DNA of 22,316 nucleotides, taken from a virus. Position 1 is the first letter of the stretch. Every line of letters begins with the position of its first letter. This document shows positions 907 to 22,236 of this stretch, one piece after another. The stretch spans positions 1 to 22,316 of the IMG/VR virus record IMGVR_UViG_3300037010_000818. One strand, given 5' to 3'. The notes beneath the pieces were generated by a model. That model saw only the letters and a list, made by a program, of their open reading frames with translations, did no database searches and was not told the DNA's origin. Both the position numbers and the translations under genes were made by a program.

Positions 907-963
907 TTACAATAAGATGCACCAGAAAGATGCTACGTCTTTAGCGTAGCACTAGTTTACAAA
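907..963 (+). repeat. Repeated hairpin element, copy 1 (longest)
   Basis: This stretch holds a 7-bp hairpin, TGCTACG (931-937) with CGTAGCA (945-951), around a TCTTTAG loop. The left flank (907-930) recurs at 16812 and the right flank (952-963) recurs at 17060, so this copy contains both flanks. The right flank also encodes the last codons and the stop of the minus-strand gene 952-1224. There is no T-run after the stem, so it is not a standard terminator. Confidence 0.75.
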
Positions 964-1224
964 CTCTGCAACTTCTGGAAGACTTTCAGGTTCGATGATG
1001 CACTTTGCGGTAGGACAAACACGCCGGATCTTTGCTTCATCTATAGTTTCAAAGCCTACTAGCTTTCCGTCTTTAGTGATTAAATAAGACCGATCCCAAG
1101 TAGAAAAATAAAAATCTGGTTCTATGTCTTCGAGAAACTTCCAAGACTTGAAAGCCCTATCAAATTCTCTATACATTCCAGAAATCACTATAGCTACATT
1201 CTTTTTAGGACTATGTCTTTTCAT
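952..1224 (-). CDS. Short N-terminal paralogue of the glycosyltransferase-like gene at 1773-2570
   Basis: The 90-residue product aligns by eye with the first part of the 265-residue product of 1773-2570. Both share a hydrophobic start, then S/AGxYREF, then a W near position 28, then DxYFSTW, then RVC followed by an EP pair. The C-terminal two thirds, including the RPD and DVLFVG motifs of the longer protein, are missing. Its last codons and TAG stop lie inside the repeated hairpin element, which suggests that the gene was cut by a rearrangement there. No Shine-Dalgarno is evident before the ATG. CTAAATATAG on the minus strand (1268-1277) may be a weak late promoter. It is either a gene remnant or a stand-alone short protein. 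Confidence 0.6.
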   Translation of the reverse strand: MKRHSPKKNVAIVISGMYREFDRAFKSWKFLEDIEPDFYFSTWDRSYLITKDGKLVGFETIDEAKIRRVCPTAKCIIEPESLPEVAEFVN

Positions 1225-1772: not shown

Positions 1773-2570
1773 TTATTGTTTCAGATATTTATCGGCACTT
1801 TCCCTCATTTGTCTTAAGTACGCCAACTTGTGTTGGTACCAAACTTTTGACAAATGCTTCACTGCGGCGAAGTCTGTGATCCCTCTTGTGTTTGACCTAG
1901 CTACCACATACTCAATAGGCACCAACTCATTGATGCTTCTGATAGCAAGACCTGCTTTCGAAAACAATTCATAGAACATGTGGTGACCTTTGTTATTCTC
2001 GGTCTTTGACCACTCAAACCCTGACATCCTAAAAATAGATTCTGGCTTTCCAACAAATAAGACATCATTTACCGAAAGACCTGGTAGTCCGCCGCCATTG
2101 TCCAAGTCCATTAACGAGTTCGAATCCATTATGACTTGGCCAAACATATTAACTACGTAAACAGAATTCTCTTTTAGAGAGTCTAGTGCCTTACGTAGTT
2201 GTTCACCATCACAGTCAACTATGAGGTCTGGTCGGATGATGATAATCGCTTCATATTCGACATCCGAAAATTGAATCGCTGAGATTCCGCGTTTCATTCT
2301 ATGAAGCATCTTGTATTGTGGCGATAGGTTCGAGAATGCTTCTTGCGGTTCTACACAGACTCTTGCTAAGTTCTGCGTATTCAATTTGACTCTATCTACA
2401 GAAACTTCCTCATGGATTTCTATGCCTAACAGATGATTGACTTCATTAGTGGTCGTCCACGTCGAGAAGTAGAGGTCTACATCAGACCAAGCAAAAAATG
2501 GCCAAGTTTTGCAAGCTGTTTCAAATTCCCTATACTCGCCAGCAATAAGTAACGCAATTTTTTTCTCCAT
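1773..2570 (-). CDS. Putative glycosyltransferase-like protein
   Basis: The 265-residue product starts with a hydrophobic beta strand and AGEYREF, then has DLYFSTW near residue 32, IIIIRPDLIVD near residues 110-120, and DVLFVGKPE near residue 170. A central I-R-x-D element and a later D-hydrophobic-F-hydrophobic-G element are typical of a broad group of phage and capsule-synthesis proteins thought to be sugar transferases (WavE-like). This is family resemblance by eye only, with no catalytic assignment. It is transcribed divergently from the SprT-like gene. It may act with the nucleotide-sugar dehydrogenase at 15278 in altering surface sugars, but that is speculation. Confidence 0.45.
   Translation of the reverse strand: MEKKIALLIAGEYREFETACKTWPFFAWSDVDLYFSTWTTTNEVNHLLGIEIHEEVSVDRVKLNTQNLARVCVEPQEAFSNLSPQYKMLHRMKRGISAIQFSDVEYEAIIIIRPDLIVDCDGEQLRKALDSLKENSVYVVNMFGQVIMDSNSLMDLDNGGGLPGLSVNDVLFVGKPESIFRMSGFEWSKTENNKGHHMFYELFSKAGLAIRSINELVPIEYVVARSNTRGITDFAAVKHLSKVWYQHKLAYLRQMRESADKYLKQ
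1784..1791 (-). promoter_or_regulatory. Late-promoter-like box GATAAATA
   Basis: Read on the minus strand this is GATAAATA, one base from the T4 late consensus TATAAATA. It lies inside the 3' end of the upstream gene and 23 bases before the ATG at 1761. Confidence 0.45.
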
Positions 2571-2574
2571 AGTG

Positions 2575-2603
2575 TTTACATCACCTTTAAAGTTGTGTAT
2601 AAT
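2575..2603 (+). promoter_or_regulatory. Strong sigma70-type promoter for the SprT-like gene
   Basis: TTTACA (2575-2580), a 17-base spacer and TATAAT (2598-2603): five of six and six of six matches to consensus. An in-frame ATG at 2602 overlaps the -10 box and therefore cannot be the start on this transcript. This supports the ATG at 2638. Confidence 0.8.
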
Positions 2604-2637
2604 GACTCATCGGTTAAACAACTTGAAACCAAAAATC

Positions 2638-3387
2638 ATGAGTCAAGCTGAACTGATTGTTAAGTCCTTCGCAGAACAAACCATTGCCAAAATCGTCGAA
2701 TATGTTCGTACTACTTATTCGCCGAAGTTCGAACTCGAGACGACTTTGTCTTTCTCTGATAGCCGTAATCGTAGCTGGGGTGGTAGTCGTCGTGGTCGTC
2801 CTTTCATTAGCCTCTCGCTCTGCCACTATCTGCCTATGAGTGATAGCCACACCTTCAATGAATACAAGTCGTTCGCTGCCAGCAATGTTATCGGCACGGT
2901 GACCGGCACTTGGCAAAAATGTCTGACCGCTTTGATCGCTCATGAAATTGGTCACGCAGTTCAACATGCGGTCACCTCCCAAAACGTTCGTGAAGCTCTG
3001 GCCATTGGTCCAAATGACCACGCCGACTTCAAGTCCCATGGTGATGTTTGGCAGCGTATTTACACCGACCTTCGCAACAAGTTCGTAAATGACGTTTCAA
3101 TCGACTTCGCAACCGAAGTTGCTATCACTGCCAAGATCTCGAGTCGCGAGAAGCGTGATACCACTAAATCCGGTCGTGAAATCACTAAGACTACTAAAAA
3201 GAATGGTAAGATCTGGTACCATCGCTATTTCAAGAATGGCGTGTTCGTGGTCAAGTTCATCGAGAGTCCTGGTCGCTTCATCTGTGCTTGCACTAACGAC
3301 GATTCTTTCGACTACGAATATGTGAAGGACCAATACGGTTCCTATGTAACTTCGCTCAAAGCAGCTCGCGCCGAGTTCGGCATCTGA
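2638..3387 (+). CDS. SprT-like zinc metalloprotease
   Basis: The 249-residue product has the zinc-protease motif HEIGHAVQH (His102, Glu103, His106) and a third likely ligand in SHGDVW (His134). That is the HExxH...HGxxW arrangement of SprT/Spartan proteins. Spartan-type enzymes cleave proteins crosslinked to DNA; here that role is inference. The N-terminal 90 residues include a Ser/Arg/Gly-rich stretch. The C-terminal part is basic and may bind DNA, and it contains CAC (residues near 216) but no obvious zinc ribbon. The ATG at 2638 is chosen because the upstream ATG overlaps the -10 box; no clear Shine-Dalgarno is seen. It ends in TGA, 36 bases before the ligase ATG. That TGA must be a true stop, because readthrough would fuse it in frame to the ligase. 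Confidence 0.75.
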   Translation: MSQAELIVKSFAEQTIAKIVEYVRTTYSPKFELETTLSFSDSRNRSWGGSRRGRPFISLSLCHYLPMSDSHTFNEYKSFAASNVIGTVTGTWQKCLTALIAHEIGHAVQHAVTSQNVREALAIGPNDHADFKSHGDVWQRIYTDLRNKFVNDVSIDFATEVAITAKISSREKRDTTKSGREITKTTKKNGKIWYHRYFKNGVFVVKFIESPGRFICACTNDDSFDYEYVKDQYGSYVTSLKAARAEFGI

Positions 3388-3423: not shown

Positions 3424-4821
3424 ATGAAAAGCTTTGTCAATGCCTTGAAGATTTGCGAATCAACCAATGGCACTGGTAGCGATGCTATCAAGCAAGAAGC
3501 TATTGGCAACCTGAGCGAAGATGGCAAACGCCTCATGGTGGAAATGTTCTCCATCTTCCGAGTCTTCGGTGTGAAGAAATATGATGCGCCGACTGAATAC
3601 GCGATTACCGATGAATCTGCGATCGTCTTCTTCAAACTGCTTGACAACCTGCATGAACGTCATCTGACCGGCAATGCGGCTCGTACCGCGGTCACCAACG
3701 CTCTGTCACAATACACCGAAGAGACGGCCAAGTATCTGGCGCGTGTTCTCGACAAGGATGCTAAAGCGGGCTTCAGTGAATCGACCGTGAACAAAGTCTT
3801 CCCTGGTCTGGTACCGGTGTTCAAAGCTATGAAGGGCGAGAAGATCGAAGACAAGAAGAAGAAGGGCAAGGATGGCAAGATCACCACCGAACCGTTTGAC
3901 TTCAAAAAGAAGATCGGCTTCCCGTGCCGTGTTGAAATCAAACACGATGGCCTGCGTTCGATCGTGTTCTCTGGCAATCCGGTTCTGTACTTCTCATATG
4001 AAGGCCGTCTTCAAGAACAGTGGAATGGTCTGTTCGATGACGAAGTGAATGCCTTGGCCACTGCTCATGGTGGTCCTATTATCGTCGATGCTGAAGTCGA
4101 AGGCAACAACTTCCTGGAAACGATTCGCGCTAAGAAGGCTGGCAACGATCTTGGCAAGGACAATCTGCGTCTGAAGGTGTTCGACATCCTGACTCGTGAA
4201 GAGTGGGACACCGAAACCTGTGCTCGCAAGCAAAATGAACGTTCTGACTACGTCACCACGCTGCTTAACAAGACCAATCCGACCAAGATCGTTCAGACTC
4301 ATTTCGCGATCTGTAAGGATCTGGAAGAGCTGAAGACATTCCACGCCAAGGCTGTTGAAGATGGCTACGAAGGCACGATGGTCAAGGTCATCGATGGCGT
4401 GTACGAATGGAAGCGTTCCAAGTTCTGGTTCAAGTGGAAGCCCGTGATCACTGTCGACCTGGAAATCGTAGACTTTTACGAAGGCAAGAAAGGCACCAAG
4501 AACGAAGGCACTCTTGGCGGCTTGGTTCTGAAAGGCACCGACGAAAATGGCCAGAAGATCAAGACGGATTGCGGTGGTTTCAAGGTTCGTGGCGGCCTGC
4601 TTGATGACTGGATGATGTCAATCGGTATCGACCTGAAAGACAATGACGTGATCAGTCAAGTGCGTGATTACATCTGGAATCACAAAGCCGAGTTCATCGG
4701 TAAGATTGTAGAAATTGAAGGTCAAGAACTGACCTTGGCTGAAGGCGAAACTGAACTATACTCTATTCGTTTCCCTCAAGTCAAGTTGTTCCGCACTGAC
4801 AAGGATTACGCAAAGAAGTAA
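3424..4821 (+). CDS. ATP-dependent DNA ligase (T4 gp30-like)
   Basis: This protein seals nicks in DNA by way of a lysyl-AMP intermediate. The 465-residue length is close to that of T4 ligase. The nucleotidyltransferase motifs occur in order: motif I EIKHDGLR with Lys173 as adenylation site; a YEGR element; VDAEVEG (motif IIIa region); EGTMVK (motif IV); and FWFKWKP (motif V). An OB-fold follows (DLEIVDFYEGKKGT). A Lys-rich linker (KKKKGKDG region) lies just before motif I. The Shine-Dalgarno CGGAG precedes the ATG by 7 bases. It forms a probable early operon with the SprT-like gene. The stop is TAA. The family is certain; the subgroup is less so. Confidence 0.93.
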   Translation: MKSFVNALKICESTNGTGSDAIKQEAIGNLSEDGKRLMVEMFSIFRVFGVKKYDAPTEYAITDESAIVFFKLLDNLHERHLTGNAARTAVTNALSQYTEETAKYLARVLDKDAKAGFSESTVNKVFPGLVPVFKAMKGEKIEDKKKKGKDGKITTEPFDFKKKIGFPCRVEIKHDGLRSIVFSGNPVLYFSYEGRLQEQWNGLFDDEVNALATAHGGPIIVDAEVEGNNFLETIRAKKAGNDLGKDNLRLKVFDILTREEWDTETCARKQNERSDYVTTLLNKTNPTKIVQTHFAICKDLEELKTFHAKAVEDGYEGTMVKVIDGVYEWKRSKFWFKWKPVITVDLEIVDFYEGKKGTKNEGTLGGLVLKGTDENGQKIKTDCGGFKVRGGLLDDWMMSIGIDLKDNDVISQVRDYIWNHKAEFIGKIVEIEGQELTLAEGETELYSIRFPQVKLFRTDKDYAKK

Positions 4822-15237: not shown

Positions 15238-15245
15238 TATAAATA
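15238..15245 (+). promoter_or_regulatory. Perfect TATAAATA late promoter for the dehydrogenase gene
   Basis: This is an exact match to the T4 late consensus. A transcript would start near 15251, which leaves the ATG at 15278 but not the in-frame ATG at 15245 as start codon. Confidence 0.7.
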
Positions 15246-15277
15246 TGATGTACCACAACAAAATAATAGAGACCATC

Positions 15278-16537
15278 ATGAAGAATATCGCAGTCATTGG
15301 ACTAGGGTATGTGGGGCTTCCACTAGCCATAGAGTTCGCTAAGACGAACAATGTCGTCGGCTTCGACATTTCAAAAGCCAAAATCAATGCATACTTAGCT
15401 GGGTACGATCCAGCCAATGAAGTAGAACCAGAGCAATTCAAGGCAGCAAAACACTTCACTCCTACCACGGACATTTCCAAGATTGCCGATGCCGACTTCA
15501 TCATCATCGCAATGCCGACTCCAGTCGACGAGCATAACATTCCAGATTTCACATACTTAAAGATTGCAAGCATTCAAGTAGGCAGTGTCATGAAGCAAGG
15601 TACTACTGTGATTTACGAATCTACTGTTTACCCTGGAGCAACCGAAGAGATTTGCATTCCTCTTCTAGAGCAAGCTTCCGGTAAAACTTGGAAGAAAGAC
15701 TTCTTCGTAGGATATTCACCAGAGCGAGTAATCCCAGGTGACAAACAGCATACAGTGTCCAAGATCACAAAGATAGTCTCAGGAGACACCCAGGCGACCC
15801 TAGAGAATGTTGCATCTTTGTATGATGAGATTATCACTGCAGGCCTCTATAGGGCATCATCGATCAAAGTGGCCGAGGCAGCCAAGGTATCAGAGAACAT
15901 CCAGCGTGATGTAAACATCGCAATTATTAACGAACTAGCAATGGTATTCAATAAACTCGGAATTGATACCCTAGAAGTCCTAGAAGCTGCTGGCTCAAAA
16001 TGGAACTTCATTCCTTATAGACCTGGTTTAGTTGGTGGTCATTGCATTGGTGTTGACCCTTACTACTTGATCCACCGCGCATTAGAAGTTGGACAAGAAG
16101 CTAAGGTAATGTCGAGTGCACGTGAAGTGAATAATAGCATTCCTAAGTTCATTGTAGATAGTGTAGTGTACGGAACACCTCGTGTGCTTGTATATGGCAT
16201 GACATTCAAAGAAGACTGCAAAGACATTCGAAACTCGAAAGCTGCAGACTTGATCAAAGAGTTCGGGCTTAAAGCTGATGACGTGGTAGTATGTGACCCA
16301 TTGGCTGATGAAGCTGAGACGATGCATGAATACGGAATCCAGATCATCCCGTTCGATCAACTTCCGAAACATTACTTTGACATCATCGTTTTAGCTGTTC
16401 CGCACAAAGAGCTTTTGGCAAAGAACCCTGAAGAGTTGTTGTCTCCAGGAAGACCGCATTGCACATTTGTGGATGTTAAGAGCAAGATGGATCGTGAAGT
16501 AGTTGCTCCATTGTGTGGCAAGGTATGGCGTCTATAA
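15278..16537 (+). CDS. UDP-sugar 6-dehydrogenase (WbpO/TviB type)
   Basis: The enzyme oxidises the C6 hydroxyl of a UDP-N-acetylhexosamine (or UDP-glucose) to a uronic acid with two NAD. The 419 residues have the NAD-binding GLGYVGLP at the N-terminus, TPVDEHNIPD and ESTVYPGATEE. FVGYSPERVIPGDKQHT is characteristic of the WbpO/TviB group. The catalytic Cys256 is in GGHCIGVDPYYL. AAKVSENIQRDVNIA and a C-terminal WRL also match. The ATG at 15278 is chosen from the late promoter position. In a phage it may supply sugars for glycosylating its own DNA, virion or the host surface; the glycosyltransferase-like gene at 1773 is a possible partner. The stop is TAA. Confidence 0.9.
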   Translation: MKNIAVIGLGYVGLPLAIEFAKTNNVVGFDISKAKINAYLAGYDPANEVEPEQFKAAKHFTPTTDISKIADADFIIIAMPTPVDEHNIPDFTYLKIASIQVGSVMKQGTTVIYESTVYPGATEEICIPLLEQASGKTWKKDFFVGYSPERVIPGDKQHTVSKITKIVSGDTQATLENVASLYDEIITAGLYRASSIKVAEAAKVSENIQRDVNIAIINELAMVFNKLGIDTLEVLEAAGSKWNFIPYRPGLVGGHCIGVDPYYLIHRALEVGQEAKVMSSAREVNNSIPKFIVDSVVYGTPRVLVYGMTFKEDCKDIRNSKAADLIKEFGLKADDVVVCDPLADEAETMHEYGIQIIPFDQLPKHYFDIIVLAVPHKELLAKNPEELLSPGRPHCTFVDVKSKMDREVVAPLCGKVWRL

Positions 16538-16754: not shown

Positions 16755-16860
16755 TTTTCTATCCAAAATAGAAAATTTAACTGAAGCTTTCTCTCTCCAC
16801 ATATGGAGCGGTTACTATAAGATGCACCAGAAAGATGCTACGTCTTTAGCGTAGCATATG
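16755..16860 (+). ncRNA. Candidate noncoding RNA A
   Basis: It begins directly after the late promoter with an 8-bp hairpin, TTTTCTAT (16755-16762) with ATAGAAAA (16768-16775). CTCCA-CATA-TGGAG (16795-16808) follows, and the unit ends at the repeated hairpin TGCTACG/CGTAGCA (16836-16856). No ORF of useful length is present. The 5' hairpin partly overlaps the expected start of transcription, so the exact 5' end is uncertain. Confidence 0.35.
16812..16856 (+). repeat. Repeated hairpin element, copy 2 (left flank plus core)
   Basis: It matches 907-951 over 45 bases with one mismatch. It then diverges exactly after the hairpin. Confidence 0.8.
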
Positions 16861-16910: not shown

Positions 16911-17060
16911 GGGCAGGAACTGTCCGAATTCACGCTCGTGGAGATTGAGTCAGACTCAAGTCGTTCTAGGACGACAAAAGCGTCGATCGTTGAAACGAGA
17001 AGGTCTGAAAAGAATCTGAAGAGCGTTTGCTCAGAAGATGCTACGTCTTTAGCGTAGCAC
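16911..17060 (+). ncRNA. Candidate structured RNA B next to the Ro60 gene
   Basis: Several helices are visible. GGGCAG with CTGTCC lies at 16911-16925. TTGAGT with ACTCAA lies at 16945-16959. GTCGTT with GACGAC lies at 16960-16975. TCGT-TGAA-ACGA lies at 16987-16998. ACGCTC (16932-16937) pairs with GAGCGT (17021-17026) and closes the inner ones like a multibranch loop. An alternative closing helix pairs CTCGT (16935-16939) with ACGAG (16995-16999). The 3' end is the repeated hairpin (17039-17059). I see no tRNA T-loop, so a YrlA-type tRNA mimic is not shown. The unit directly follows two promoter signals and lacks an ORF. Confidence 0.45.
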
Positions 17061-17689: not shown

Positions 17690-19237
17690 ATGTCAAAGAT
17701 CAATCAACGTGGTACAACCACCAATAACGGCCTGGGCTATTCTGGTAACGGCAACCTCCAACATGTTAAGAGTCCAGAACAAGTGTTGTACGAAATTGCA
17801 GTATCTACTCTGTATGGCAAGGAACACAACTACTACGAGCCGCAAGATGGCATTGTGAAACGGTTAGAAGCTGCGGTGGATACTGTTGTGGCTAAGGACA
17901 ACCTTGACTATGTGGCTAATGTTATTATCCATGCTCGTACCAACATGAACATTCGCACCATGCCACTATTGCTGACTGGGTTGTTTGCCAAGGCTCTTCG
18001 TGAGCAAGGCAAGACTTACCCACAACTCCGCAAGGTGGTGTGTGACGTGATTCAACGTGCTGACCAGATCACTGACATGATTTCCGTCGCTCGCATGTTG
18101 TTCGGTGCTGAAAAGGCCAAGAGTGGAGCAGTGTCTGTACAAAAGATGCCTATGGCATTCAAGCGTGGTATTGGTGACGCTTTCAACAAGTTCGACGAAT
18201 ACGCCTTCGCCAAGTATAACCGCAACGGAGCTGTGAAATTGCGTGATGTACTTCGCATCGTCCATCCACGCAGCAAGGATGAAGCACAAGGTCTTCTGTT
18301 CGAAAAGATCATGAAGGATGAACTTAAAACTCCTTACACTTGGGAAACCCGCCTGTCTGCAAACGGTCAAGCTGACTATAAGCAGTTGTCTAACAAAGAC
18401 ATCTGGACCGAATTGGTCATGTCTGGTGATGTTGGCTATATGGCTTTGTTGCGTAACCTCCGCAACATCAGCCAAGCTGGGTTGGATGCTCAAGTCGAAC
18501 AGAAGTATGTAGCTGACGTGATTGCTTCACGTGAAAACGTGTTGAAATCGAAGCAGTTCCCATATGCTTTCCTGGATGCCTACTCTGCAATCGAAAGTGA
18601 CGGTTCTACTCGTATCCGCACTGCTATTAGCAACGCGCTGGATCACTCGTTTGCTAACCTTCCTGTTATCGGTGATAACGTATGGATCATCATCGACCGC
18701 TCTACCTCTATGCGGCACAGTCACTACTTAACCGATAACCAAACTCCGATTAAGACTGCGTGCTTGTTCGCTTCGGCTCTGGCAAAGGCTAATGCCAATG
18801 CTCGTAACCTGAAGATCACGATGTTCAGCGACAATGCTAAGCATATTCCGATGAACACGAGTGATTCGATCATGGTCATGACCGAATACTTGATGAAAAA
18901 TGTCTATGGCGGCGGCACCAATCTGGAAGCAGCCCTAGTTCTGAAGTCTTCATTGGGCTTCGAACCAGACACCATCGTCGTCCTGTCCGACATGGAAGTA
19001 AACCAACTTCAAGGTGGTACTGTTTCAAAGACGTTTTGTGTTGATGCAGTGAAAATCGCTATCAACCTGAACTCACGTGACACGACTCCTATCGGCGAAA
19101 AAGCTGGTTGGTATCAACTTGCAGGATGGAGCGAGAAACTATTCGATTTTATCCCTGCAATGCGTAACGGGCAGTCTATTGTTGAGACATTGTCTAAGCC
19201 ATACCTTGGTCTAGGCATTAAGAAGCTGTTTTCGTAA
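17690..19237 (+). CDS. Ro60-type TROVE/VWA RNA-binding protein
   Basis: Ro60 proteins are rings of helical repeats that bind Y RNAs and misfolded noncoding RNAs. In bacteria (Rsr) they assist RNA maturation and decay with exonucleases such as PNPase. The 515 residues have a TROVE domain (about 20-330), including HPRSKDEAQG (His192) and YMALLRNLRNIS. A C-terminal VWA domain has a complete metal site: DRSTS (Asp336), GGTNLE (Thr410) and LSDME (Asp434). Length and order match cellular Ro60. AAAAGG precedes the ATG by about 9 bases. The upstream 1.15 kb is structured and noncoding, as in bacterial rsr loci where Y RNA genes lie beside rsr. The stop is TAA and a UUCG terminator follows. Confidence 0.92.
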   Translation: MSKINQRGTTTNNGLGYSGNGNLQHVKSPEQVLYEIAVSTLYGKEHNYYEPQDGIVKRLEAAVDTVVAKDNLDYVANVIIHARTNMNIRTMPLLLTGLFAKALREQGKTYPQLRKVVCDVIQRADQITDMISVARMLFGAEKAKSGAVSVQKMPMAFKRGIGDAFNKFDEYAFAKYNRNGAVKLRDVLRIVHPRSKDEAQGLLFEKIMKDELKTPYTWETRLSANGQADYKQLSNKDIWTELVMSGDVGYMALLRNLRNISQAGLDAQVEQKYVADVIASRENVLKSKQFPYAFLDAYSAIESDGSTRIRTAISNALDHSFANLPVIGDNVWIIIDRSTSMRHSHYLTDNQTPIKTACLFASALAKANANARNLKITMFSDNAKHIPMNTSDSIMVMTEYLMKNVYGGGTNLEAALVLKSSLGFEPDTIVVLSDMEVNQLQGGTVSKTFCVDAVKIAINLNSRDTTPIGEKAGWYQLAGWSEKLFDFIPAMRNGQSIVETLSKPYLGLGIKKLFS

Positions 19238-19331: not shown

Positions 19332-19955
19332 ATGGCAGTCACAGACTTAGTCGTCCATTTTGGCGATGTCATCGAACTTAAAGATCCGGGCTTCAATCTA
19401 GGACACATGCAGAAAGTGCTAGACGAAAGTCCGCATTGGGTCCAATACAACCCACGCAAACCAATCAAGCGTTATGGCCTCTCAGTCACATCGGCTGATG
19501 GTGGCTATTCAGGCATTCCCGACTTAGACTCGCTTCGTGAGCACAACATGCTCAACGGAACTAACTACACCGAAAAGTCATTCCGTAAACGTACACCAAT
19601 TGTTGATGAGCTAGGTTTAGGCCCTTTTCTTGATATTTGGGAGCCTTGGTTAGGACGTGCGCATTTCTTGAAGTTAGATGCTGGTGGCTATTTCCCTCCA
19701 CACCGTGACAATGGCATTTCATTTCCACCAAACACTATTAGGATTTTGATTCCGATTCGTTGGAAGAACCGTCACGCTGTGTGGATTCAGGATGGCGAAC
19801 TCTTAACCCTAGAAGAAGGCAAGGCGTACTTTGTCAACACTACAAAGGAACATTCGTTGTTTTCATATCAGGACGGGACTATGCTTCTAGTGTTGAATGT
19901 GATGACAAGTCAAGAGACTGTGATGAAGGTTGCTAAGAATGCAAAAATTCTTTGA
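19332..19955 (+). CDS. Asp/Asn beta-hydroxylase-fold 2-oxoglutarate oxygenase
   Basis: Enzymes of this fold hydroxylate Asp, Asn or Arg side chains using Fe(II), 2-oxoglutarate and O2. The 207 residues contain AHFLKLDAGGYFPPHRDN with His124-x-Asp126 as two iron ligands and a second His174 in TTKEHSLFSY, plus the usual RILIPIRW strand between them. The substrate is unknown. GTAAGG lies about 5 bases before the ATG, and a late-type box is upstream. The gene overlaps the PP-loop gene by 17 bases, so they are coupled. It ends in TGA immediately followed by TAA. Confidence 0.75.
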   Translation: MAVTDLVVHFGDVIELKDPGFNLGHMQKVLDESPHWVQYNPRKPIKRYGLSVTSADGGYSGIPDLDSLREHNMLNGTNYTEKSFRKRTPIVDELGLGPFLDIWEPWLGRAHFLKLDAGGYFPPHRDNGISFPPNTIRILIPIRWKNRHAVWIQDGELLTLEEGKAYFVNTTKEHSLFSYQDGTMLLVLNVMTSQETVMKVAKNAKIL

Positions 19956-20859
19956 TAAGGATTGGTTGAAGTTCGAGATAGGAAAAGATCCAGTCAAAGA
20001 CACCAAGACATCTTTGGTATGGAGACTCAAGGATAACGTTAGGACGCCGCCAGGGATCGGTCTCAGCCACATGGTTGACGGAATAAGACGGATGAAACTT
20101 GGAACGTCCCCTTACGTTTCCTTAAGCGGAGGGGTCGATAGCCAAGCGGTGTGTTTACTCTTGAAGGAAGCCGGAATCAATTTCATACCAGTTATTTTAG
20201 AATTTAAAGATCGTTACAACAGCATGGATACCGATTGTGCATATGCGTTCTGTGAAAAGCATGGTATCAAATATGAAACAATTGAACTTGACGTGTTCCA
20301 ATTTTTGAGTCGCTCGCTTCCTGAGTATGCAGACAAGTACAAATGCCCATCGCCGCAGTTCAATACTCATTTTAAGTTCTATGAAATGTTGATTGATAAG
20401 CATAACCCGAGCTCAATCTTGGCCGGTGGTAATGCACCATTTTTCTATAATGAGAAACTCACATTTAACACTACGGTGGCTCAGAACTCATGGACAAATT
20501 TTGTGGTGGTTAACGACTATCCTTTATTTGGGAATGTGTTAGGGTGGAGCCTAGACATTGCTGCATCATTGATTGTTGCAACACCAAACGTTACAGCTGA
20601 TGATGAGCTTAAAACTGAAAGATATGAGACTAAGGTCCTCGGTATGCATAGGTTGGGATTGGATGTTACACCGCAAGACCAAAAGTACAACGGATTCGAA
20701 GTGTTTAAGCAACACTTAGCTAGGATGACCGGAGATGGTTGGTCGTTTGAGAAGTCATTCAGGTATCCATTCGAAGCTAAATTTCCAAATTACACAGGAG
20801 TCTTGGCACCTTCAAAGTTAGAGAAAATTTTATTGAGAATGAACAAAGCTTACAAATAA
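19939..20859 (+). CDS. PP-loop ATP pyrophosphatase (asparagine-synthase-like)
   Basis: The 306-residue product has the PP-loop SGGVDS (residues 63-68), which binds ATP and activates a carboxyl, carbonyl or similar group by adenylation. Another conserved-looking element is ILAGGNAPFF near residue 165. It lacks an N-terminal glutamine amidotransferase domain, so it is not a complete asparagine synthase. It belongs more broadly to the PP-loop (AANH) superfamily. The ATG at 19939 lies inside the hydroxylase gene. The pair may carry out a two-step modification of a small molecule, protein or nucleotide; the substrate is unknown. The stop is TAA. Confidence 0.75.
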   Translation: MQKFFDKDWLKFEIGKDPVKDTKTSLVWRLKDNVRTPPGIGLSHMVDGIRRMKLGTSPYVSLSGGVDSQAVCLLLKEAGINFIPVILEFKDRYNSMDTDCAYAFCEKHGIKYETIELDVFQFLSRSLPEYADKYKCPSPQFNTHFKFYEMLIDKHNPSSILAGGNAPFFYNEKLTFNTTVAQNSWTNFVVVNDYPLFGNVLGWSLDIAASLIVATPNVTADDELKTERYETKVLGMHRLGLDVTPQDQKYNGFEVFKQHLARMTGDGWSFEKSFRYPFEAKFPNYTGVLAPSKLEKILLRMNKAYK

Positions 20860-20891: not shown

Positions 20892-21905
20892 ATGAAATTA
20901 TCTCCACTAAGTGTAGCCGTTAATTCAGTTGCAGATATTCAGCCAGACATGCTGTGAGCACTTAGCAGAATTGCAAATCGATATAAGCCATTTGTTTCTA
21001 ATCCAATTTTGGCTGACTTAACTCCTAATATCCAAGTAGAAGTCATCGTAATGGATTCTGGTTATATGGCTTCTCATCCAGAATTTGAAGGCGCGAATAT
21101 TGAGACTCTTTATAAAGTTCCAGCTTTTACGTCTTTCGACGATGACACCGGCCATGGTACTAGCGTATTGAGCGCCATCGTCGGTAAAACATTTGGTGTA
21201 AATTCAAAAGCTGCCGTAAAGATTGTGAAGCTCTTTGGTGCAGGTTATCAAACAACAGCTACTGATTTTTACACAGCATTGGATGCAGTTTATAACTACC
21301 ATACTTCTAAGCCTGAAGTTCTGAAAATTGTCTTGGCTTCTTGGTCTGTTGCTAATGATCCAATCATTGCAGCAAAGATCACTGACATGATCGAAGCAAA
21401 CTTAGTCGTAGTGGCGGCGGCTGGTAACCAAGCAGGCAACATTGATGACATTGTTCCGGCTGGTGTTCCTGGCGTATTGACAGTAGCGGCTTCGAACAAG
21501 AACGATGAAGAGCTTTACGCGGTGTTTGGTACCGCTCGCCAGCTAGACTTGTATGCCCGGGGCGAATTGGTTGGTGTAGCATCTATAGATTCTGGATTGC
21601 CATACGGCTACGCTACGGGCTCTTCGATTTCTGCAGCACTAACCGCCGGTTGCACTTCTCTAATTGCCGGAGTGTTCAAGACCCTTCCACAGGACTCAAG
21701 CGTTATTGATGCTGTTAAACGTTACAGTACATATTCGGCTTTGCTAGTTAATAGCAATGTATCATCTACCGAAAATCGTTTGTTGTATCGCCCAGACTCT
21801 GTGACTTTGAGTGCCGATCAAGATTACTACTTAGGTACTATCACTATTGGATCCGACACACCAACATTGACATTAGTTGTCGATTCCATTTTTGCCATTG
21901 TCTAA
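20892..21905 (+). CDS. Subtilisin-like serine protease with in-frame TGA at codon 22
   Basis: The S8 catalytic triad is complete: Asp in VMDSG (codon at 21054), His in TGHGTSV (21153) and Ser in GSSISAA (21624). The oxyanion region AAAGN lies between His and Ser. ATG 20892 has AGGA 8 bases upstream and a late-type box before it. The frame is open apart from TGA at 20955, where the context QPDML-x-ALSRIANRY would suit Trp. A start after the TGA would have to be TTG 21009 with no ribosome site. So the protein needs TGA read as an amino acid, or the gene carries a nonsense mutation. It may process or be part of the virion (inference). The stop is TAA, overlapping the next ORF. Confidence 0.75.
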
Positions 21906-22236
21906 GTATAAGGAAACATTTACAGACATTCATACGTCTGTAGTGTTTGCTTCTGATTCTGAAGTATTTGCTTCAGTTGTGGAATTAAAAGATGACTCTG
22001 CTGTGGTTATTCATCTACCAGACGGATTTGATTTGCCGCCTACTGAAAAGCTTCATAAGTACAGCTTCAAAGTTACATTGAACGCTACTGGTATGAGTGT
22101 AGAATCGACTGCTTTGTACTTCTTTGTTGCAACAAATGACGCATCTCATGATGATATTCAACAGGCAGTACAAGCATTGGTTGATGAAGGACGTGTGTTC
22201 AACATCACCCCTCTAGGCAATAATGGCCAAAAGTAA
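21898..22236 (+). CDS. Hypothetical protein without an ATG start
   Basis: The frame encodes about 112 residues from TTG 21898 (MSKYKETFTDIHTSVVF) or 119 from TTG 21877. It has acidic, beta-rich character and no known motif. No ATG and no Shine-Dalgarno occur near the start, and it overlaps the end of the subtilase gene in the +1 frame. It is either translated from a TTG by coupling or made as a +1 frameshift extension of the subtilase. The late position and composition suggest a structural protein (inference). The stop is TAA. Confidence 0.6.
   Translation: MSKYKETFTDIHTSVVFASDSEVFASVVELKDDSAVVIHLPDGFDLPPTEKLHKYSFKVTLNATGMSVESTALYFFVATNDASHDDIQQAVQALVDEGRVFNITPLGNNGQK

What the first reader, a model, noticed from the sequence alone, without database searches (positions are those of the whole stretch)
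20892..21905. Subtilase gene split by one TGA with an intact catalytic triad downstream
The upstream 21 codons have the only plausible ribosome site and ATG. All three catalytic residues lie after the TGA in perfect frame, over 315 further codons without another stop. Selection has therefore kept the frame open, which argues against long-term decay. Readthrough, recoding or a very recent mutation are the options.
Basis: partly seen in the sequence, partly recalled or inferred. Interest (0 to 1): 0.7.

Follow-up and report, generated by a model that had tools for sequence, protein, structure and literature searches.

The report
Recently broken phage protease gene
A phage gene for a subtilisin-type protease carries a stop codon exactly where its intact relative has tryptophan, and a frame break near its end as well, so it looks like a freshly damaged gene (or a sequence error) and not a new way of reading stop codons.

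Summary
In detail: ATG 20892, 21 codons, TGA 20955, then 315 open codons to TAA 21903-21905 encoding an S8 subtilase with Asp, His and Ser of the triad in frame. The closest intact relative (L012, a 296,594-base phage contig) has the same neighbouring genes and aligns without a gap straight through the TGA, where it has Trp. The upstream codons therefore belong to the protein, and the TGA interrupts its first helix. Two facts argue against programmed readthrough. No stop lies there in any of 60 scored viral or 72 scored cellular relatives. The gene also has a second break: its C-terminal part continues in another frame (21889-22209, E 7e-7), while L012 is one frame. Decay is recent or absent: at 62 conserved positions the window departs at 19 and intact L012 at 20. 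Most likely a recent nonsense mutation plus frameshift; sequence error cannot be excluded; leaky UGA-to-Trp decoding could give a little enzyme. More interesting in passing: 54 of 62 distinct viral relatives lie within 300 bases of a PP-loop (QueC-like) ATPase gene.

The parts
20892..20954 (+). Start and first 21 codons of the subtilase gene (ATG with AAGGA 8 bases before it)
   Evidence: same-frame start in L012 22 codons before the Trp
20955..20957 (+). In-frame TGA; L012 has Trp here; Trp in 25 of 60 viral relatives in this column
   Evidence: X in this place also aligns with Trp of PDB 8c4z and 3f7o
20958..21905 (+). 315 open codons and TAA: rest of the N-terminal helix and the S8 catalytic domain
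21054..21056 (+). Catalytic Asp55
   Evidence: invariant in A4
21153..21155 (+). Catalytic His88 (GHGT)
   Evidence: invariant in A4
21624..21626 (+). Catalytic Ser245 (GSS, in place of GTS)
   Evidence: invariant in A4
21855..21905 (+). Stretch in which homology to L012 passes from frame +3 to frame +1 (second break); contains a run of T
   Evidence: tblastn pieces end at 21854 and restart at 21889; frames overlap 21877-21905
21877..22236 (+). ORF of 119 aa, the shifted C-terminal part of the same ancestral protein
   Evidence: E 7e-7 to L012 residues 333-436; score 98 against at most 63 in 1000 shuffles
19930..20859 (+). PP-loop ATP-pyrophosphatase-like gene (SGGVDSQ), conserved partner of phage subtilases
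   Evidence: Pfam QueC E 7e-6; 50% identical orthologue next to the L012 subtilase; pairing
19332..19955 (+). Oxygenase-like gene, first gene of the syntenic run
   Evidence: 69% identical orthologue in L012 record; weak Asp/Asn hydroxylase match of that orthologue, below cut-off

Best explanation
The feature is the 5' lesion of a phage S8 (proteinase-K-like) subtilase gene that was intact until recently. In the intact relative the protein starts 22 codons before a Trp in its first helix, runs through the catalytic domain and ends in a C-terminal tail. In this window the Trp codon reads TGA, and the tail lies in another frame. Shown: positions of both breaks, homology across both, intact triad, no excess loss of conserved residues. 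Inferred: both breaks are real mutations of this phage and abolish normal expression, leaving a 21-codon peptide and at most trace amounts of catalytic domain through ordinary misreading of UGA by the Trp tRNA. Loss may be tolerated because such phages can carry a second subtilase copy, as the L012 phage does.
For: L012 aligns gap-free through the TGA with Trp there. Trp is the commonest residue of that column, 25 of 60 viral relatives. 0 of 60 viral and 0 of 72 cellular relatives scored have a stop within 40 codons before the Asp; of 142 distinct proteins, 9 without the Asp motif and 1 cut by a contig edge were dropped. Second break: C-terminal homology in frame +1, E 7e-7, 0 of 1000 shuffles as good. 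Recency: 62 columns conserved in other relatives, window departs at 19, L012 at 20, shared 16. Second copy of the pair in the L012 record.
Against: One record only; no reads and no near-identical second record, so neither break is verified. Both lie in the last 1.4 kb of the contig, where a sequence fault would look the same. Only one close intact relative, at 46% identity, so the age of the breaks is bounded only loosely. The second copy is known in a relative, not in this phage (22 kb fragment).
Confidence: 0.58

Rival explanations
1. Sequencing or assembly error: the phage gene is intact and the TGA and the frame shift are faults of this metagenome contig near its end.
For: Two breaks in one gene, both within 1.4 kb of the contig end, the second in a stretch with a run of T; no excess loss of conserved residues; several other long ORFs of the window match families over most of their length.
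Against: The TGA lies 1.36 kb from the end, further than the usual low-coverage tip of a contig (general knowledge, coverage not available). The TGA is a plain substitution, not an indel.
Confidence: 0.27
2. Leaky expression: the TGA is real but read at low level as Trp by the host's near-cognate Trp tRNA, so some catalytic domain of the ancestral sequence is still made.
For: The column is Trp in L012, the residue that misreading of UGA by tRNA-Trp inserts; UGA decoding by tRNA-Trp(CCA), raised by a 4-bp anticodon stem, was shown in E. coli (PMC13092985, passages). The catalytic fold is complete before the second break.
Against: No structure at the TGA, z 1.16, 0.30, -1.02 and 0.53 for four stretches; no suppressor tRNA in the window or in the L012 record, which has 2 tRNA-Met and a tmRNA-like gene; host unknown; tail still lost.
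Confidence: 0.1
3. Programmed recoding or a reassigned TGA: readthrough regulates the protease.
For: Frame open for 315 codons; triad intact; the relative's residue at that place is Trp.
Against: Stop not conserved in 60 viral relatives; TGA terminates 4 of 23 tabulated genes and 2 of those 4 are followed at once by another stop, while 73 TGG encode Trp; no selenocysteine-type hairpin seen; a frameshift would have to be programmed too.
Confidence: 0.03
4. Translation restarts downstream (TTG 21009 or ATG 21051) and the shorter protein is the native one.
For: A TTG in frame opens the ORF listed at 21009.
Against: No Shine-Dalgarno-like sequence before TTG 21009; the codons between TGA and TTG are conserved with L012 (ALSRIANRYKPFVSNPI / AQNRIVNRYRPLIANPL) and form most of the first helix of the model, so the native protein includes them.
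Confidence: 0.02

Closest known systems
L012 subtilase (IMGVR_UViG_3300049460_000128), intact syntenic relative
   Same: 46% identity over 307 aligned positions, same two neighbouring genes, no prodomain, same start position relative to the Trp within a codon
   Different: One unbroken frame of 444 codons; Trp instead of the stop; a minus-strand ORF lies between ATPase and subtilase
Peptidase family S8 (PF00082), proteinase K-like; PHROG 3677 'protease'
   Same: Profile matches, triad, fold (PCSK9, proteinase K, aqualysin among the best)
   Different: No prodomain; gene interrupted twice
Natural UGA readthrough in phages (Q-beta coat/A1; seen only in a search listing)
   Same: UGA followed by a long open frame
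   Different: There the short product is itself a functional protein (recalled); here it would be 21 residues, and no relative keeps the stop
QueC-like enzymes that act on proteins in defence (Cap9, QatC; passages of PMC13279940)
   Same: The partner gene is a PP-loop ATPase with weak QueC similarity beside a possible protein partner
   Different: Phage-borne, paired with a protease; no function tested; similarity covers only part of the protein

Membership tests
Peptidase S8 / subtilase | Profile match above curated cut-off | tested here: met
   PF00082 54.3 bits, cut-off 21.8
Peptidase S8 / subtilase | Asp-His-Ser triad and oxyanion Asn in order | tested here: met
   Asp55, His88, Asn179, Ser245 invariant in the 26-row A4
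Peptidase S8 / subtilase | Subtilisin fold | tested here: met
   Model pLDDT 81.9, read with Trp at the stop; Foldseek best E 1.1e-19, to subtilases
Peptidase S8 / subtilase | N-terminal prodomain (usual in secreted members) | tested here: not met
   21 codons only before the TGA; L012 also lacks it; L009 and others have it. Not a strict requirement of the family (recalled)
Programmed stop-codon readthrough | In-frame stop conserved among homologues | tested here: not met
   0 of 60 viral and 0 of 72 cellular scored
Programmed stop-codon readthrough | Stimulating structure near the stop | tested here: not met
   No fold clearly better than shuffles, z from -1.02 to 1.16
Programmed stop-codon readthrough | Extended product made | not testable with these tools
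   needs proteomics or ribosome profiling
Reassigned TGA (code 4 type) | TGA used as sense in many genes, not as terminator | tested here: not met
   4 of 23 tabulated genes end in TGA, 73 TGG codons
Selenoprotein | SECIS-type hairpin right after the UGA | tested here: not met
   folds of 49 to 126 bases, none clearly better than shuffles; the commonest residue of relatives at the site is Trp and none has Cys
Recent pseudogene | Intact orthologue exists and further lesions are present | tested here: met
   L012 intact; frame change near 21855-21905
Recent pseudogene | Lesions confirmed in reads | not testable with these tools
   no reads held

The most novel reading that the evidence does not exclude
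The phage makes its subtilase only through double recoding, UGA read as Trp near the start and a frame change near the end, so that protease output depends on the translational accuracy of the infected cell.
Probability: 0.03. Interest if true: 0.7.

Novelty: new member of a known kind. Interest (0 to 1): 0.25.

Why it matters
By itself the split gene is ordinary: a disrupted member of a phage protease family. Settling it prevents a false claim of stop-codon recoding. The context matters more: the search showed that phage subtilases of this family are nearly always paired with a PP-loop (QueC-like) ATPase gene and often carry cysteine-rich tails, a conserved module for which I found no description in the papers searched (terms on subtilase or subtilisin-like with phage, PP-loop and asparagine synthase: 0 papers each) and which can be tested directly.

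Tried and rejected
Near DNA relatives: megablast of the whole window against phages, no match. A degenerate DNA pattern around the stop, allowing TGA or TGG, in viral contigs: 0 matches; near-identical records may be left out by the tool. The neighbouring ATPase and the 119-aa ORF as queries in viral contigs: no relatives. Protein search of phages and plasmids gave only distant bacterial-type proteases. Structure of the intact L012 tail: low confidence, not used. Selenocysteine and stem-loop ideas rejected. A suppressor tRNA in the relative's record was looked for and not found.

In one search the start of the gene ending at 3387 was set at 2596 by hand (ORF listing gives TTG 2509); this does not affect stop codons. 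The rows are ORFs, so absence of inner stops in the other 22 is by construction.

For the 26-row and 25-row alignments used for folding, the rows were chosen by hand for variety: 25 of the 62 distinct viral proteins. The Trp count depends on the MAFFT alignment; relatives with other residues there are real (35 of 60).

Full report
Observation. The gene starts at ATG 20892 behind AAGGA, runs 21 codons, meets TGA at 20955, and continues for 315 codons to TAA at 21903-21905. The part after the TGA is a subtilase (PF00082 E 1.7e-14; PHROG 3677 'protease' E 1.2e-20). All reported features are there.

What the homologues say at codon 22. The window is a 22,316-base virus record without near DNA relatives in the phage collection. 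A profile search of viral contigs returned 80 loci (the best of 129), the first being L012, 46% identical, on a 296,594-base contig. There three genes stand together in the same order as in the window: an oxygenase-like gene (69% identical), a PP-loop ATPase (50%) and the subtilase (46%), with a minus-strand ORF between the last two. The L012 protein, 444 codons in one frame, aligns with the window from its residue 16 without a gap straight through the TGA; it has Trp at that place. In an alignment of the window and 60 relatives Trp is also the commonest residue in that column (25 of 60; the rest Asp, Thr, Asn and others). When the stop was given as X, phmmer put it on the Trp of two solved subtilases, 8c4z and 3f7o (the other three alignments shown do not reach that residue). 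A model with Trp at the stop puts the residue in a helix of residues 18-36 (local confidence only moderate there, blocks of 59-77) and matches subtilases by fold.

Second break. The same tblastn search gave a second piece in another frame: L012 residues 333-436 match 21889-22209 in frame +1 (E 7e-7), whereas the first piece ends at 21854 in frame +3. Against 1000 shuffles of the 119-aa ORF the score was 98 against at most 63. The ORF has only TTG and GTG starts in its first part and none has a Shine-Dalgarno-like sequence. The ORF is therefore best read as the shifted tail of the same ancestral protein. The gene is broken twice.

Age of the damage. At 62 columns conserved in at least 70% of the other viral relatives, the window departs at 19 and the intact L012 at 20, 16 of them shared. 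The first and second codon positions differ less from L012 than the third in the catalytic part (0.45, 0.34, 0.64); in the tail the contrast is weak (0.61, 0.40, 0.59). The lineage was under selection until recently; this says nothing about translation now.

Recoding. Stops within 40 codons before the catalytic Asp: 0 of 60 viral and 0 of 72 cellular proteins scored; of 142 distinct proteins 9 lacked a recognisable Asp motif and 1 was cut by a contig edge. Folding of four stretches round the TGA gave z-scores of 1.16, 0.30, -1.02 and 0.53. TGA ends 4 of 23 tabulated genes, and in 2 of the 4 another stop follows at once; Trp is otherwise TGG, 73 times. No tRNA was found in the window; the L012 record has two tRNA-Met and a tmRNA-like gene. 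A programme that needs both a readthrough and a frame change in this phage alone is improbable. Leaky decoding remains possible: UGA can be read by tRNA-Trp in bacteria, and a 4-bp anticodon stem raises this in E. coli (PMC13092985, passages).

Mutation or error. No reads are held. Both breaks lie in the last 1.4 kb of the contig. The clustering fits either a gene no longer under selection or a poor stretch of sequence. I lean to mutation because the TGA is a substitution well inside the contig, but I keep 0.27 for error. The L012 phage has a second ATPase-subtilase pair with prodomain and a cysteine-rich tail, so loss of one copy could be tolerable.

Context. Of 62 distinct viral subtilases, 56 have an ORF with SGGxDS (PP-loop) in the fetched flank, 54 of them within 300 bases; the nearest one lies upstream on the minus strand in 33, upstream on the plus strand in 17 and downstream on the plus strand in 6 of the 56; of the 6 without, three (L010, L050, L089) begin at the contig edge. 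Cellular relatives: 6 of 80, with shorter flanks. The L012 record has 4 such ORFs in 297 kb. Of the 62, 26 have at least four Cys in the last 60 residues, against 0 of 80 cellular ones. Pfam, PHROGs and PADLOC place the ATPases weakly near QueC, asparagine synthase and NAD synthase. QueC-like proteins Cap9 and QatC act on proteins in bacterial defence (PMC13279940, passages; PMC13329287 has no hit for protease or peptidase). A protein-modifying pair is a plausible guess, untested.

Noticed in passing
window 19930-20859 with 20892-21905; L002-L091: Phage subtilases of this family are paired with a PP-loop (SGGxDSQ, QueC-like) ATPase gene: within 300 bases in 54 of 62 distinct viral proteins; 6 of 80 cellular ones have such an ORF in the flank. 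Looks like a conserved two-gene phage module of unknown function.
   Followed up: partly
C-termini in L009, L010, L013-L016, L020-L023, L034 and others: 26 of 62 distinct viral subtilases end in a variable cysteine-rich tail (4 to 14 Cys in the last 60 residues), 0 of 80 cellular ones; most others end in a tyrosine-rich YYYD-type motif.
   Followed up: partly
L184 3075-5542: The L012 phage has a second ATPase-subtilase pair, with prodomain and cysteine-rich tail, next to a gene whose start looks like a UDP-sugar dehydrogenase (recalled); the window also has a UDP-glucose dehydrogenase gene at 15245-16537.
   Followed up: partly
window 907-951, 16812-16856, 17015-17059: A 45-base intergenic repeat (98% and 69% to the first copy) ending in a perfect small hairpin TGCTACG-loop-CGTAGCA; one copy abuts a truncated gene.
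   Followed up: no
window 952-1224 (minus): A 90-aa ORF resembling only the first part of its 265-aa neighbour at 1773-2570; it ends right at the repeat copy 907-951: probably a truncated paralogue.
   Followed up: partly
window 2509-3387 and 3424-4821: Another TGA followed in frame, 12 codons later, by the ATG of a 465-aa ORF; motifs look like a metallopeptidase (HEIGH) and a DNA ligase (recalled), so two separate genes in the same frame by chance is likely.
   Followed up: no
window 17690-19237: TROVE/Ro60-type RNA-binding protein with a vWA domain (PF05731 E 1e-24); distant relatives in 93 phage records.
   Followed up: no
L180 6223-6647 (minus): tmRNA-like gene in the L012 phage record (ARAGORN, flagged tmRNA*, tag ANDSSFRQAVAA).
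   Followed up: no
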